Shown piece by piece: positions 20,523-39,591 of a stretch of DNA of 51,705 bases. Position 1 is the stretch's first letter. Every line of letters begins with the position of its first letter. Source of the stretch: a virus; IMG/VR virus record IMGVR_UViG_3300036781_000186, positions 1 to 51,705 of that record. The stretch is one strand, 5' to 3'. Below the pieces are notes generated by a model. It searched no databases and was not told the origin of the DNA. It worked only from the letters and a program-made list of their open reading frames with translations. The position numbers were made by a program, and so were the translations under genes.

Positions 20523-20647
20523 AAAAGTTTATTTGGTTCTATAATATTCATAAAAATGATATTTGTCAAGATATAAATAGTATGTAGAGGAATATAAAAT
20601 CAAAAAATGTTCTTGATTTTTAATTTTATTATGATAATATGCTCACC

Positions 20648-21670
20648 ATGTTAATCAAATATCCAGACACAGAACAATTTCGTAACGTCATTCGCAATGT
20701 GCAACATAAAGCGCAATACACTGGCAAAGACGCCAATGGTGATGCCATTATGAATCGCCTTGCCGTCATGCCTACTCTTACCTTTGAGGGAACTGTTAAG
20801 GTGCATGGCTGTTGTTCTTCCGTTCGCCTTGAAGATGATGCTCGTATTCCACAGTCCCGCGATAATGAGATTAGTGTGGAAAATGACAATTATGGTTTTG
20901 CTCGTTTCATCGCGGGAACTCCTGATAATGCTTTCCTTACCTTGAAAGATTTATTTGGTAATAATATCGTTGTTCACGGTGAATGGGCTGGTAAAGGCAT
21001 TCAAGATACCGTCGCCGTTAATGAATTGGAAAAAATGTGGATTATCTTTGCTGTTCAACGCATTACGCCTAATGGTGATGAAGAAAAGTGGCTTAGTTTG
21101 AAGGGGATTGATTTGACCGCTTTGAACCAATACAAAATTTACAGCATTCGTCAATTTGGTGTGGAAACCGTTGATATTGATTTTGAGAAGCCAGCGGAAG
21201 CCACCAATAAAATTAATGAATTGAGTCTTGCCGTTGAAAATGAATGTCCCGTAGGTAAATTTTTCGGTATCTCTGGTATCGGTGAAGGGCGTGTATGGCG
21301 TTGCATTACAAGTGGTTGGGAATCTTCTAAGTTCGTCTTTAAGGTTAAGGGACAGGCTCATAGTAAGAGCAAAGTTAAGAAACTCGCTAATGTTGACGTT
21401 GAAAAGATGAAGTCCATTGAAGATTTCGTGGATAAACATCTTAGTGAGGAACGACTTGTACAGGGCTGGAACTGGCTCAAGGAGCAGGGTAAACCGCAAA
21501 CTGAGGTGTCCACGGGGGATTTCATCAAATGGCTCTTTAATGACATTATTAAAGAAGAAGCCGATGAACTTACGGCATCTGGTTTGACCGTTAAAGAATT
21601 GGGTGGTGTCATCTCTAAGAAAGCTAAAATCTGGTTCTTTACGAAAATCAATGGTGAGGTTGGTCTGTGA
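20648..21670 (+). CDS. RNA ligase, T4 Rnl2-like
   Basis: 340 residues from the second ATG; the first (20639) overlaps the -10 box TAATAT. Nucleotidyltransferase motif I is KVHG with Lys51 as the predicted adenylated residue; GEWAGKGIQ (motif III region), GRVWRC (motif IV) and KFVFKVKG (motif V) follow. A C-terminal helical domain of about 100 residues is present. Rnl2 enzymes seal nicks in duplex RNA; the substrate here is unknown. Confidence 0.9.
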   Translation: MLIKYPDTEQFRNVIRNVQHKAQYTGKDANGDAIMNRLAVMPTLTFEGTVKVHGCCSSVRLEDDARIPQSRDNEISVENDNYGFARFIAGTPDNAFLTLKDLFGNNIVVHGEWAGKGIQDTVAVNELEKMWIIFAVQRITPNGDEEKWLSLKGIDLTALNQYKIYSIRQFGVETVDIDFEKPAEATNKINELSLAVENECPVGKFFGISGIGEGRVWRCITSGWESSKFVFKVKGQAHSKSKVKKLANVDVEKMKSIEDFVDKHLSEERLVQGWNWLKEQGKPQTEVSTGDFIKWLFNDIIKEEADELTASGLTVKELGGVISKKAKIWFFTKINGEVGL

Positions 21671-23281: not shown

Positions 23282-24379
23282 ATGAAAATTTCGTTAGAAA
23301 ATTTAGATAAAAATAACTTTAAACTCAAAGAAGGGATTATTGATGGGAAAGTTGTGTATCTTATCAATCCTGTGGAATTTGATTGTAAGTGGACTCTCGA
23401 CAATTTGCATCTTCGTAGTGTATTAATTGATTTTAATGGGCAAATTTTAAGTCGTGGATTAAACAAATTTTTTAATGTCGGTGAAAAGTCCGAAGTTTAT
23501 CCTAATCCCGATAAATTTAATGATTGGATTTTGACGAATAAAGAAGATGGAAGTTTGATGATTTGTGATTTGATTTGGGAAAAATTGAATGTAAGAACAC
23601 GCGGAACCATTTCATATAAAGACCACGAGAATACAGATGATTTCAATTTTGTCATTAATAAATATTCAATTCAAAATGTTGTCTTGAAATATGCAGATTA
23701 TACCATTCTTTTTGAGATTTATAGTCCTACTAACGTAATTGTTTTAAAGCCTTATACGGAACCTGAGATTATTTTTCTCGGCGCAATCCATAAGGAGAGC
23801 GGTGTGTATTATCCCTATTACACTTCCGTTGGTAAAGAAATCCAAAATTTTATTGGTTGCAATACTCCTGAAATTTTTGAAATTAAAGGTGGAATTTTGG
23901 AGCTTGCTGTAAAAATCAAAGAATGGCAAGGGAAAGAAGGATTAGTTTTAAATTACAATAATAATCAAAATCAATTAAAATTGAAATCTGACTGGTATTT
24001 AATTCGTCATAGAATGAAATCGGAATTGAGTAGTTTAGAAAAAGTGATTGACCTATGGCTATCTTTAAATTGTCCTGACTACATCACGTTCTATAATGAA
24101 GTGGTGAATACATTTGATTACGAAATTGCTAATATTGCACAGAGTCATATCTCCAATATCTGTGATGGGTATAAAGAAGTATTGAAAATCGTTGCTCATA
24201 TGAAAGCATTTGTGAAACCTTTGAAATTGGGTTCTCGTAAAGATGCTGCGGGTAAAATCATCGCGGCGTATGGCGAAACTAATCGTGGTTCTTTCCTGTT
24301 CAAACTACTTGACGGAAAAGAATTGCATGGTGATGATATTAAGAAACTAATCTTTCAGGTTTTGAAAAAGAATGTATGA
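23282..24379 (+). CDS. RNA ligase, T4 Rnl1-like
   Basis: 365 residues, similar to T4 RnlA (374). Motif I is KEDGS with Lys87 the predicted adenylation site; IIIa is FEIYSPTNVIV; IV is KEGLVLNY; V is LKLKSDWYL. T4 Rnl1 repairs tRNA cleaved in the anticodon loop; no polynucleotide kinase partner is seen in this window. The stop overlaps the next start (ATGATG). Confidence 0.9.
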   Translation: MKISLENLDKNNFKLKEGIIDGKVVYLINPVEFDCKWTLDNLHLRSVLIDFNGQILSRGLNKFFNVGEKSEVYPNPDKFNDWILTNKEDGSLMICDLIWEKLNVRTRGTISYKDHENTDDFNFVINKYSIQNVVLKYADYTILFEIYSPTNVIVLKPYTEPEIIFLGAIHKESGVYYPYYTSVGKEIQNFIGCNTPEIFEIKGGILELAVKIKEWQGKEGLVLNYNNNQNQLKLKSDWYLIRHRMKSELSSLEKVIDLWLSLNCPDYITFYNEVVNTFDYEIANIAQSHISNICDGYKEVLKIVAHMKAFVKPLKLGSRKDAAGKIIAAYGETNRGSFLFKLLDGKELHGDDIKKLIFQVLKKNV

Positions 24380-28970: not shown

Positions 28971-28999
28971 TTGACATTCATAAATAAGTATTGTAAGAT
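28971..28999 (+). promoter_or_regulatory. Dedicated promoter of the interrupted tRNA
   Basis: TTGACA 28971-28976, 17-nt spacer, TAAGAT 28994-28999; the tRNA 5' end is 12 nt downstream. Confidence 0.75.
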
Positions 29000-29011: not shown

Positions 29012-29111
29012 GGCCAGTTAGACCAAAGGTAGAGTCAACGAACAAATGAAAGCGCATAGCGCAATGATTAAAATTCGTGTAGCGTGAGTTCGACCCTCAC
29101 ACTGGCCACCA
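29012..29111 (+). tRNA. tRNA with 24-nt insertion in the anticodon loop
   Basis: Acceptor GGCCAGT / ACTGGCC (7 perfect pairs), TA at 8-9, D arm GAC / GTC, anticodon stem ACGAA (29038-29042) / TTCGT (29074-29078), 5-nt variable loop, T arm GTGAG-TTCGACC-CTCAC, A discriminator, encoded CCA. The anticodon loop is 31 nt instead of 7 and contains the hairpin GCGC-ATA-GCGC. Without 24 nt it would be a perfect 76-nt class I tRNA; a loop keeping U33 would read UAA as anticodon, but that is uncertain. Confidence 0.8.
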
Positions 29112-29504
29112 TCAATCAAAATAATTGACAGAATGTTTTTCGGCATGGCAATTGGCACACATTAACGAACATTTTTTCATTTCTTCTAAAATATCATTAT
29201 CCGATACACCGTGCTTTCCCCATATAGCGGCGGAAATTTCAAATAATTTTTCTTTTGGATTTTTATGATGAAATTGTAAAGCATCTATACATTTGTCATA
29301 TTGACAAATCTCGCATTTCCCTCCTGCAAGCATTTTAAATTTAGTGCGGCGTCTAAAACGATTTCTGTTTTGGCGATTTAATGTTTTGGATTTTCCCATT
29401 GGATTAACGTAATAAGAAATTAAACCACGGGAGCACCCTAAAATTTCTTGTATTTCTCTATACGTTTTTCCTTCACTTTTAAGTTTTAATATATCGTCTT
29501 TCAT
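29112..29504 (-). CDS. HNH homing endonuclease with N-terminal HTH
   Basis: 130 residues from MKDDILKLKSEGKTYREI. Helix-turn-helix (YREIQEILGCSRGLISYYV), basic linker, then an HNH domain: CEICQYDKCIDALQFHHKNP and CSLMCANCHAEKH. The stop codon directly abuts the CCA end of the interrupted tRNA, a typical insertion next to a conserved RNA gene. Weak own promoter (TTCAAT, 17 nt, CATACT, 7 nt). Confidence 0.85.
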   Translation of the reverse strand: MKDDILKLKSEGKTYREIQEILGCSRGLISYYVNPMGKSKTLNRQNRNRFRRRTKFKMLAGGKCEICQYDKCIDALQFHHKNPKEKLFEISAAIWGKHGVSDNDILEEMKKCSLMCANCHAEKHSVNYFD

Positions 29505-29567
29505 GTATATAAGTATGTTCAAATCTCTGAAAGAATTGAACTTTAATTAAAAATTTTCAAAAATCTC

Positions 29568-29595: not shown

Positions 29596-29630
29596 ATGGA
29601 ACGTAAAGATTGATGTTCTTTTACATGTAT

Positions 29631-29709
29631 TGCGGGTGAGTGAAACGGAAAATCATTCCAGCCTCATAAGCTGAGAGATAGTAGGTTCGACTCCTGCACA
29701 CCGCTACCA
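29631..29709 (+). tRNA. tRNA-Met (CAT) with imperfect acceptor stem
   Basis: Anticodon stem CAGC / GCTG with loop CTCATAA, D stem GTGA / TCAT with GG in the loop, T arm GTAGG-TTCGACT-CCTGC, 3' end ACACCGCTACCA. The 5' strand TGCGGGTG pairs only with a bulge and has a T-T mismatch at 1-72, reminiscent of the unpaired 1-72 of initiator tRNAs; an initiator role is possible but unproven. Confidence 0.7.
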
Positions 29710-29714
29710 ATTTA

Positions 29715-29856
29715 GAATTTACTGTTAAGGTGTAATAGCCTACGGCAAAAGTGGCCAATCGTGTGATTAGGAGAGGATTACGAGTTTTCTACCCTCCCTT
29801 GTGCCTGTCCCGAACGCAAGACTACTAGGATAAACGGAAAATCACAACAGTAATTC
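29715..29856 (+). ncRNA. Closed-stem structured RNA after tRNA-Met
   Basis: Starts 6 nt after CCA. Outer helix GAATT(T)ACTGTT / AACAGTAATTC (11 bp, one bulged T) encloses about 120 nt containing GCC-TAC-GGC and CTTGTG / CGCAAG hairpins. No ORF or known family. Same arrangement as the RNAs at 30217 and 39478. Confidence 0.55.
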
Positions 29857-29866
29857 AACTTAGATG

Positions 29867-29894
29867 TTGACAAAAAGAAATTATATGTTAATAT
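29867..29894 (+). promoter_or_regulatory. Promoter inside RNA island
   Basis: TTGACA 29867-29872, 16-nt spacer, TAATAT 29889-29894; no start codon follows at the usual distance, so it serves the RNA genes up to about 30460. Confidence 0.7.
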
Positions 29895-29899
29895 CATCA

Positions 29900-30143
29900 C
29901 GTTGTTAAAAACACGGAAAGACCGTGGCTCGCGAGAGAACAACAAGATTTTTAGAATATGCAAGATTGAATGAGATGCAATGCACCTTGTTCATACCTCG
30001 CAGATAATCGGTGTAAGTAATCCGTCAAGATGAAAGCACCACGCATGGAAGCAGCTACTTGACGGTAGTAAATCATTGCGTTATATAGGCCCGATTGCTT
30101 CACGATGTAGGCATACACTGTGGTTTTAAGGGCAAATAATTTT
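29900..30143 (+). ncRNA. Structured RNA upstream of the 30144 tRNA
   Basis: About 240 nt with nested helices: GTTGTT / AACAAC enclosing CACGG / CCGTG near the 5' end, and CCGTCAAG (30022-30029) / CTTGACGG (30058-30065). Ends directly at the tRNA. No ORF, no known family. Confidence 0.5.
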
Positions 30144-30215
30144 GGGCGCATCGTCTAATTAGGATACTTCCCATTACGGGAGGGGATATTGGTTCAAGTC
30201 CAGTTGCGCCCACCA
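30144..30215 (+). tRNA. tRNA with non-canonical anticodon loop (possible UUA)
   Basis: Acceptor GGGCGCA / TGCGCCC, Glu-type D arm GTC-TAATTAG-GAT, T arm ATTGG-TTCAAGT-CCAGT, A then encoded CCA, 72 nt. The best anticodon stem CTTCC / GGAGG gives loop CATTACG and anticodon TTA, which would read UAA; A33 and C37 are abnormal. A weaker register (TTCCC / GAGGG, one mismatch) gives TAC (Val). Confidence 0.75.
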
Positions 30216-30216
30216 A

Positions 30217-30347
30217 TTTAATGTATCTCGTAAGAGAATAACGCTAGGCAGTTCCAACGGAAAAATTGCACGACGTTGGTGGAGCGGACGACTGAACCGA
30301 GTCGTTGTTATGTTGTCCAATGTTGCAATTCCGACAATTACATTAAT
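30217..30347 (+). ncRNA. Closed-stem pseudoknotted RNA after tRNA
   Basis: Outer helix CAATT(T)AATGTA / TACATTAATTG (11 bp, one bulged T, using the A of CCA) encloses hairpin CTC-GTAA-GAG (GNRA-type loop), hairpin ACGACT / AGTCGT, and a pseudoknot: CCAACG (30254-30259) / CGTTGG (30274-30279) with AATTGCA (30264-30270) / TGCAATT (30324-30330). No known family. Confidence 0.55.
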
Positions 30348-30460
30348 TGATTTCTTAAATCATGGTCGCGGGTATCCATGAGCTTGAGGGCTGCGATAAG
30401 TGAAATTCCGTAGATTTTTGTCTTTTTGTAAGACTAAAAGACTTAACTTTTCCTTGACTT
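30348..30460 (+). other. 3' end of RNA island
   Basis: No gene. Hairpins CATGG / CCATG and GTCTTTT / AAAAGAC (about 30420-30443), the latter followed by TTAACTTTT and possibly terminating the island before the promoter at 30453. Confidence 0.4.
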
Positions 30461-39004: not shown

Positions 39005-39280
39005 ATAAAAAGATTTAGGTTGGCCTGTTTCGGTCAAGCAATCGGGGGAAGAATATCTCTCGGCCTTACAAGTTTCGGTTGGGAGTAGCTATCCTACCAT
39101 GATACGTTAAAGGTTAGTGTTGTTAAATCGCAAGACAACATCTTTCAGGTTTAGCCCCTGAATTGGTTAAATGACCTTCGTATCTAAAATTTCTTACGAG
39201 ATATAGTCCTCGGTATGCTCGTATTAGTGAGTGGGTTGCCTAGCCACCAGAAAAAGGTAGGAGTGAGGACAATGATTTAC
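39005..39280 (+). ncRNA. Large structured RNA upstream of interrupted tRNA
   Basis: A three-way junction: GATACG (39101-39106) / CGTATC (39179-39184) continued by AAGGTTA / TGACCTT, holding hairpins GTTGT / ACAAC and TTCAGG / CCTGAA. Downstream a pseudoknot: TACGAG (39195-39200) / CTCGTA (39218-39223) and GTCCTC (39206-39211) / GAGGAC (39265-39270). The 5' part has TTGGCC / GGTCAA. No ORF; family unknown. Confidence 0.6.
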
Positions 39281-39476
39281 GGGCGGTTAGCTCAGTGGTG
39301 ATTCAGAGGCTCAAATAGGGTATGGAGATAAACTAGAATAAGGCCAGAGAGTAATGCGGGTAAACTGAATACTAGTCTCGAAAAGAATCTGATACATGTG
39401 TTGGGTTTGAAGTAAAGCGAGAGCAATCTCAGTAATATGAGATAGGTCAATGGTTCGACTCCATTACCGCCTACCA
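39281..39476 (+). tRNA. tRNA interrupted by about 115 nt between D and T arms
   Basis: 5' GGGCGGT-TA-GCTC-AGTGGTGATTCA-GAG and 3' AATGG-TTCGACT-CCATT-ACCGCCT-A-CCA form a good acceptor, D and T arm, but 39309-39423 is extra and has its own helices (GAGA-TAA-ACTAG / CTAGT-CTC and GCTC / GAGC). A hairpin ATCTC / GAGAT with an 8-nt loop just before the variable region is a candidate anticodon arm; the anticodon is not assignable. Confidence 0.65.
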
Positions 39477-39477
39477 A

Positions 39478-39591
39478 TTTAGAGTGAGAACAAACTAAGA
39501 CACAGAGCGGTGAAAAGCCGAAAAAAGATTTAGGAGTGAAACCTAAATTCTGTTTGTCCGTTGAACTTGGATAATAGTTCCTCATTCTAAA
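39478..39591 (+). ncRNA. Closed-stem structured RNA after interrupted tRNA
   Basis: Outer helix TTTAGAGTGAG (39478-39488) / CTCATTCTAAA (39581-39591), 11 bp with one G-U; next helix ACAAAC / GTTTGT; inside, hairpins CGG-tgaaaag-CCG and ATTTAGG-agtgaaa-CCTAAAT. It starts 2 nt after CCA, as at 29715 and 30217. Confidence 0.65.

What the first reader, a model, noticed from the sequence alone, without database searches (positions are those of the whole stretch)
29012..29111. tRNA with a 24-nt insertion exactly in the anticodon loop
All arms of a class I tRNA are perfect, including an anticodon stem ACGAA/TTCGT, but the loop is 31 nt and holds a GCGC-ATA-GCGC hairpin. Bacterial tRNA introns are normally group I and far longer. 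The phage also encodes two RNA ligases, so cut-and-ligate splicing is conceivable. Alternatively the long loop makes a decoy or nuclease-resistant tRNA.
Basis: partly seen in the sequence, partly recalled or inferred. Interest (0 to 1): 0.75.

Follow-up and report, generated by a model that had tools for sequence, protein, structure and literature searches.

The report
Phage tRNA gene with tiny intron
A virus of bacteria carries a leucine tRNA gene whose anticodon loop is interrupted by exactly 24 extra letters, and a database survey shows that short, clean insertions in the anticodon arm recur in viral tRNA genes, which points to a poorly described kind of small tRNA intron; that the extra letters are removed has not been shown.

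Summary
29012-29111(+) is a tRNA gene: acceptor 7/7, T arm 5/5 and anticodon stem 5/5 Watson-Crick pairs, encoded CCA, its own sigma-70-like promoter, and a 31-nt anticodon loop. Removing 24 nt between C32 and U33 gives CTTAAAA, a tRNA-Leu(UAA). An Ochrobactrum phage and 22 IMG/VR contigs have the same anticodon arm uninterrupted. No other copy of the insert and no close relative of this phage was found.

Clean insertions of this kind recur. A survey of interrupted viral tRNA genes found another 32/33 hairpin insert (L147, tRNA-Phe) and a large family of 37-54-nt inserts, mostly at 28/29 or 29/30, with a covarying hairpin and an ACWGCAA motif. Excision restores a canonical arm in 56% of 123 motif-defined cases (shuffles 1.1%). 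D-loop inserts of similar size are nearly absent. The window insert is not in that family.

Best reading (0.42): a mini-intron removed by cutting and ligation, possibly by the phage's T4 Rnl1-type ligase. No endonuclease, RNA data or splicing proof exists; a recently inactivated gene (0.30) is close behind.

The parts
28971..28999 (+). sigma-70-like promoter TTGACA-17-TAAGAT directly upstream of the tRNA
   Evidence: one of at least 24 copies of a promoter-like element in the window
29012..29043 (+). 5' exon, nt 1-32: acceptor, D arm, 5' strand of anticodon stem, C32
   Evidence: AGAGTCAACGAAC identical to the Ochrobactrum phage tRNA-Leu
29044..29067 (+). 24-nt insert AAATGAAAGCGCATAGCGCAATGA; GCGC/GCGC hairpin at 29052-29055 and 29059-29062
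   Evidence: placement is unique in the alignment with the uninterrupted homologue because neither end can shift
29068..29111 (+). 3' exon, nt 33-76: UUAAAA, 3' strand of anticodon stem, 5-nt variable loop, T arm, acceptor, A73, CCA
   Evidence: TTAAAATTCGT identical to the homologue
29112..29522 (-). HNH endonuclease gene, convergent, its stop codon abutting the tRNA 3' end; candidate homing endonuclease
   Evidence: PHROG HNH families E 1.3e-22, translation
23282..24379 (+). T4 Rnl1-type RNA ligase, motifs KEDG and KLKSDWY present
   Evidence: PF09511 E 1.4e-12, T4 Rnl1 2c5u E 2e-14, translation
20639..21670 (+). second RNA ligase (PF09414 / phrog_548)
39281..39476 (+). second interrupted tRNA-like gene of the same phage: about 119 extra nt in the D loop, acceptor 7 pairs, T arm 5 pairs, CCA encoded
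   Evidence: the 77-nt in-silico spliced form matches phage tRNA-Ile (E 8e-6), the unspliced 196 nt match nothing

Best explanation
It is a phage tRNA-Leu(UAA) gene carrying a 24-nt mini-intron between nt 32 and 33. The tRNA is transcribed as a 100-nt precursor (plus leader) from its own promoter (promoter shown by consensus only). The precursor keeps the acceptor, T and anticodon stems while the intron's small GCGC hairpin is displayed from the anticodon loop (predicted). The intron is then cut out at C32^A and A^U33 and the two halves, held together by the tRNA fold, are ligated to a 76-nt tRNA-Leu(UAA) for UUA codons, which are 25% of the phage's leucine codons. The ligation step could be done by the phage's Rnl1, whose T4 relative is known to rejoin tRNA cut in the anticodon loop (established knowledge). 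The cutting enzyme is unknown. Steps shown: gene anatomy, homologues without the insert, recurrence of clean anticodon-arm inserts in viral tRNA genes. Steps inferred: transcription, cutting, ligation, charging.
For: Excision of exactly 24 nt gives the anticodon arm AACGAAC-TTAAAATTCGT that is identical in Ochrobactrum phage vB_OspM_OC and uninterrupted in 22 IMG/VR contigs. Relative to that homologue the acceptor and T stems differ in sequence but remain fully paired. A second tRNA of the same phage is interrupted and also yields a canonical-type tRNA on excision. The same 32/33 site holds a 22-nt hairpin insert in a tRNA-Phe(GAA) (L147) and a 49-nt motif-bearing insert in a tRNA-Gly (L222). 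Short anticodon-arm inserts form a real class: 123 motif-defined interrupted tRNAs, 56% restored by excision against 1.1% for shuffles, perfect arms 30% against 0.04%, covarying hairpin, usually no intact same-anticodon copy in the fetched locus. Inserts are position-specific: the complete D-loop scan gave 12 contigs, 2 with a paired acceptor, against 90 with paired acceptors from a row-capped scan of the anticodon-to-variable region. Rnl1 with intact motifs is encoded. UUA is used 202 times in 10,210 codons.
Against: No RNA data. No cutting enzyme, Pnkp or RtcB was found among the ORFs scanned or in the window. No other carrier of this insert and no close relative of the phage was found, so conservation of the insert cannot be tested. 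The local fold of the arm is not unusually stable (z -0.9). Two other loop-insert tRNAs sit beside an intact isoacceptor. The large insert family has a different site and motif, and a model of it does not hit the window.
Confidence: 0.42

Rival explanations
1. Recently inactivated gene: a short hairpin-bearing sequence was inserted into the tRNA gene (replication slippage, repair of a cut, or a small mobile element) and the tRNA no longer decodes; the stems look intact only because the event is recent.
For: Insert unique to this phage in all scans; the insert contains a 5-nt direct repeat AATGA; L361 and L147 show loop-inserted tRNAs with an intact isoacceptor present, as expected for a dispensable duplicate.
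Against: The exons, promoter and CCA are intact; no intact Leu(UAA) gene was seen in this 51.7-kb fragment; a second tRNA of the phage is interrupted in an equally clean way; insert positions in viral tRNAs are strongly non-random.
Confidence: 0.3
2. The 100-nt RNA works unspliced: a long-loop tRNA that serves as decoy or escapes an anticodon nuclease, or that binds a protein through its hairpin.
For: The tRNA body is intact and the loop displays a GC hairpin; loop-inserted tRNAs next to an intact isoacceptor occur elsewhere; from general knowledge, host defences cut tRNA anticodon loops and phages carry variant tRNAs.
Against: A 31-nt loop cannot present UAA in a normal 7-nt loop; the loop is not conserved among inserts; no defence or counter-defence gene was recognised nearby.
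Confidence: 0.14
3. The insert acts at the DNA level: it destroys the recognition site of a homing endonuclease (perhaps the adjacent HNH enzyme) that targets tRNA anticodon-arm sequences, or is a scar of its cutting.
For: An HNH gene abuts the tRNA; HNH genes also lie in the tRNA cluster of the Ochrobactrum phage.
Against: HNH and GIY-YIG genes are scattered elsewhere in the window too; the target site of this enzyme is unknown; it does not by itself explain what the RNA does.
Confidence: 0.1
4. Chance resemblance or assembly artefact.
For: Metagenome contig; Rfam does not call the gene.
Against: None of 200 simulated sequences gives such a structure; exact anticodon-arm identity with an isolated phage's tRNA-Leu.
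Confidence: 0.02

Closest known systems
Bacterial and phage group I introns in tRNA genes (cyanobacterial tRNA-Leu(UAA) and others)
   Same: Interrupt the anticodon loop; the precursor would be spliced to a functional tRNA; tRNA-Leu(UAA) is a classic host.
   Different: Those are self-splicing ribozymes of some 200 nt or more (general knowledge); this insert has 24 nt, no group I core and no Rfam match.
Archaeal and eukaryotic protein-spliced tRNA introns
   Same: Short (tens of nt), in the anticodon arm; archaeal introns are known at non-canonical positions (general knowledge).
   Different: Those are recognised through a bulge-helix-bulge or the mature tRNA fold by a splicing endonuclease not known in bacteria or phages; by hand pairing no bulge-helix-bulge can be drawn at 32/33 here.
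Phage tRNA-Leu(UAA) with a short variable loop (Ochrobactrum phage vB_OspM_OC and relatives)
   Same: Same anticodon arm, class I body, CCA encoded.
   Different: No insertion in any of the others.
T4 Pnkp/Rnl1 tRNA repair
   Same: T4-type Rnl1 encoded with conserved motifs; would act in the anticodon loop.
   Different: T4 repairs host tRNA cut by a defence nuclease; here a phage tRNA would be cut twice and lose 24 nt. No Pnkp was seen in this fragment.
Insert family with hairpin and ACWGCAA motif at 28/29 (found in this survey)
   Same: Small removable insert in the anticodon arm of viral tRNA genes; at least one member sits at 32/33 (L222).
   Different: 37-54 nt, conserved hairpin and motif, mostly at 28/29 or 29/30; the model of it does not match the window.

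Membership tests
tRNA-Leu(UAA) gene of phages | Cloverleaf with paired acceptor, anticodon and T arms, CCA | tested here: met
   D stem 3 pairs plus a mismatch
tRNA-Leu(UAA) gene of phages | Anticodon loop CUUAAAA | tested here: inconclusive
   Met only after removing 24 nt; the genomic loop has 31 nt
Group I intron | Catalytic core of about 200 nt or more | tested here: not met
   24 nt, no Rfam match
Bulge-helix-bulge tRNA intron | Two 3-nt bulges around a 4-bp helix at the splice sites | tested here: not met
   Hand pairing around 29043/29044 and 29067/29068; the predicted fold has only a 3-bp AAU/AUU helix near the sites
Bulge-helix-bulge tRNA intron | Splicing endonuclease of the EndA family in the cell | not tested
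   Host unknown; bacteria are not known to have it
ACWGCAA insert family (this survey) | Hairpin followed by ACWGCAA, 37-54 nt | tested here: not met
   Covariance model R1 gives no hit in the window
Mini-intron (functional definition) | Precise RNA-level removal and ligation | not testable with these tools
   Needs RNA from infected cells
Mini-intron (functional definition) | Exons identical to an uninterrupted homologue at the junction | tested here: met
   AGAGTCAACGAAC / TTAAAATTCGT
tRNA pseudogene | Decay of stems, promoter or CCA | tested here: not met
   All intact; a recent event is not excluded

The most novel reading that the evidence does not exclude
Viral (and some bacterial) tRNA genes carry a set of undescribed, non-group-I mini-introns of about 20-60 nt in the anticodon arm, among them a structured family with a covarying hairpin and an ACWGCAA motif at nt 28/29, and the window's 24-nt insert at 32/33 is one of them; they are removed by a splicing route not yet known in bacteria (small ribozyme or cut-and-ligate with phage or host ligases).
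Probability: 0.42. Interest if true: 0.92.

Novelty: new variant of a known kind. Interest (0 to 1): 0.72.

Why it matters
Known tRNA introns are self-splicing group I introns in bacteria and phages, or protein-spliced ones in archaea and eukaryotes. Phage tRNA genes with clean inserts of 20-60 nt fit neither. If the inserts are spliced, a third route of tRNA splicing exists in bacteria, and the phage-encoded RNA ligases, whose natural substrates are in part unknown, would have a new candidate job. It also means that tRNA finders run with default settings miss or mislabel such genes. If the inserts are not spliced, many phages maintain tRNAs with unusual extra arms, which is also unexplained. 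The question is directly testable by small-RNA sequencing.

Tried and rejected
Relatives of the phage by Rnl1 and by a 229-aa ORF in IMG/VR: none; megablast of 1-25000 in phage records: none. Exact search for the insert: none. Search for tRNA-Leu(UAA) genes with 14-44-nt inserts: eight hits, all without a paired T arm, so not tRNAs. Group I intron: I suspected S- and R-like strings at 39201 and 39302, but Rfam gives nothing there even at E 10, so I dropped it. RNA ligases as general partner of the inserts: Rnl1 3/42 and 3/28 records, PF09414 11/42 and 4/28, RtcB 2/43, no association with the large family. Pnkp or a defence gene in the window: none among the ORFs scanned. The window insert as member of the ACWGCAA family: rejected by the covariance model. 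Literature: eight full-text searches in an open-access library found no paper on short introns in phage tRNAs; subscription papers and preprints are not held, so prior description is not excluded.

Full report
What is there. The structure is not chance: none of 200 simulated sequences of the window's size contains a comparable one. A sigma-70-like promoter with 17-nt spacing ends 12 bases before the tRNA and belongs to an element repeated at least 24 times in the window. The window is a 51.7-kb virus record, probably a fragment of a larger genome, with rIIA, rIIB, helicase and many small ORFs. It has no close relative in the phage records or IMG/VR.

Uninterrupted homologues. A search with the in-silico spliced 76-mer found one phage record, tRNA-Leu(TAA) of Ochrobactrum phage vB_OspM_OC (E 1e-3). 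Alignment places the insert uniquely between C32 and U33: AGAGTCAACGAAC and TTAAAATTCGT are identical on either side, while acceptor and T stems differ in sequence and stay paired. The pattern AACGAAC-N(0-30)-TTAAAATTCGT in IMG/VR gave 22 contigs with the uninterrupted tRNA arm; all hits with a gap were non-tRNA sequence. A shuffled 31-nt loop would reduce to CTTAAAA by one 24-nt excision with probability 0.0014.

A second case in the same phage. 39281-39476 has a paired 7-bp acceptor, paired T arm and CCA but 168 nt from acceptor to T arm. Removing about 119 nt from the D loop gives a tRNA-like sequence that matches phage tRNA-Ile at E 8e-6, while the unspliced form matches nothing. Its anticodon loop would have 8 nt, which I cannot explain.

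Is this a wider phenomenon? I scanned IMG/VR for class I tRNAs with 20-50 extra nt between D and T arm. For each I tried all two-cut excisions. Sixteen or so become a perfect anticodon arm only when about 40-50 nt are removed after nt 27-29. Extending to all fetched loci, and to a genome scan keyed to a shared motif, gave 60 such inserts with the motif, 37-54 nt long, mostly at 28/29 or 29/30, in tRNAs of many specificities. They share a 7-bp hairpin in which every pair has compensatory changes followed by ACWGCAA. As a test not conditioned on the arm, I took 123 interrupted tRNAs by motif alone: 56% give a canonical arm on excision, against 1.1% of shuffles; 30% a perfect one, against 0.04%. 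Most of these loci hold no intact tRNA of the same anticodon, and many hold no uninterrupted tRNA at all. Rfam sees them only as tRNA. I know of no description of them. An alternative to splicing remains: at 28/29 the inner stem and loop are intact in the precursor, so such tRNAs might work with an extra arm.

Inserts in the anticodon loop itself are rarer. L147 tRNA-Phe(GAA) has 22 nt at exactly 32/33 with a hairpin; L222 tRNA-Gly(UCC) has a 49-nt motif-bearing insert at 32/33; L361 Asn, L316 Ile(UAU) and several tRNA-Arg(UCU)-like genes (L095, L163, L397) have 26-30-nt inserts, in the last group pairing with the anticodon itself (z -4.3 to -5.5). L147 and L361 also have an intact tRNA of the same anticodon, so for loop inserts a dispensable or altered duplicate is a live option.

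Control for position. The same frame with 20-50 nt extra in the D loop gives 12 contigs in the complete scan, of which only two have a paired acceptor. So inserts are not scattered at random through tRNA genes. The comparison is not exact: the anticodon-to-variable scan allows more positions and was capped.

Mechanism. The phage has a T4 Rnl1-type ligase with KEDG and KLKSDWY motifs and a PF09414 ligase. Rnl1 occurs in 4 of 10 records with short loop inserts (window, L095, L316 and L361, which lies in the same contig as L124) and 3 of 54 others (p 0.009, or 0.033 without the window; post hoc, not corrected for contig length). For the large family there is no association with Rnl1, PF09414 or RtcB. 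No bulge-helix-bulge can be drawn and no cutting enzyme is known. I therefore put splicing of the window tRNA at 0.42, inactivation at 0.30, a functional unspliced form at 0.14 and a DNA-level role at 0.10.

Novelty. The window tRNA is a new variant of a known kind (tRNA intron), by anatomy; the family that the search turned up may be more important than the window case. Eight literature searches in an open-access library found no earlier description, which is weak evidence because preprints and subscription journals are missing.

Noticed in passing
L069, L092, L110, L118, L121, L125, L136, L140, L146, L160 (viral) and L174, L178, L192, L197, L210, L215, L228, L242, L258 (bacterial assemblies): Family of 37-54-nt inserts mostly at tRNA nt 28/29 or 29/30 with a covarying 7-bp hairpin followed by ACWGCAA; excision restores canonical anticodon arms. 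Apparently undescribed.
   Followed up: partly
window 39281-39476: Second interrupted tRNA-like gene, about 119 extra nt in the D loop, 8-nt anticodon loop after in-silico removal.
   Followed up: partly
window 30144-30215: tRNA with CCA (37.6 bits) whose anticodon loop reads CATTACG: A at 33 and C at 37, formal anticodon UUA. Identity unclear.
   Followed up: partly
window 29632-29705: tRNA-Met(CAU)-like gene with odd acceptor and D arm, about 80% identical to unannotated or tRNA-Met sequence in Klebsiella phage 05F01 and LP65-like Lactobacillus phages.
   Followed up: partly
window about 29596-30450 and 39005-39590: Long stretches without convincing ORFs behind promoter-like elements, containing these tRNAs and other possibly structured RNA; string ACGGAAAA recurs at 29645, 29834 and 30257. 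No Rfam family beyond tRNA.
   Followed up: no
L095, L163, L397: tRNA-Arg(UCU)-like genes with 26-27-nt inserts best placed at 36/37 that pair with the anticodon and extend the anticodon stem.
   Followed up: partly
L398 (9404, 9544), L116 (3507): Another insert type at nt 28/29, 50-58 nt, with AAAACNCCGTTT...GGTTAT ends, twice in one locus.
   Followed up: no
L066 4971, L389 2024: A complete tRNA-Phe nested inside the anticodon loop of another tRNA; minihelix-like nested inserts in L103 and L067.
   Followed up: no
L005, L006, L017, L025, L029, L041, L044, L046, L052: Phage tRNA-Leu(UAA) genes with a variable loop of about 5 nt, unlike the long variable arm of bacterial tRNA-Leu; how they are charged is unclear.
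   Followed up: no
L080, L126, L144, L158, L166, L173: Inserts in the anticodon loop sharing CCCTCATGGTGAAGGGCCAAAACGCCGGGA-like sequence; no Rfam match beyond tRNA in L080.
   Followed up: no
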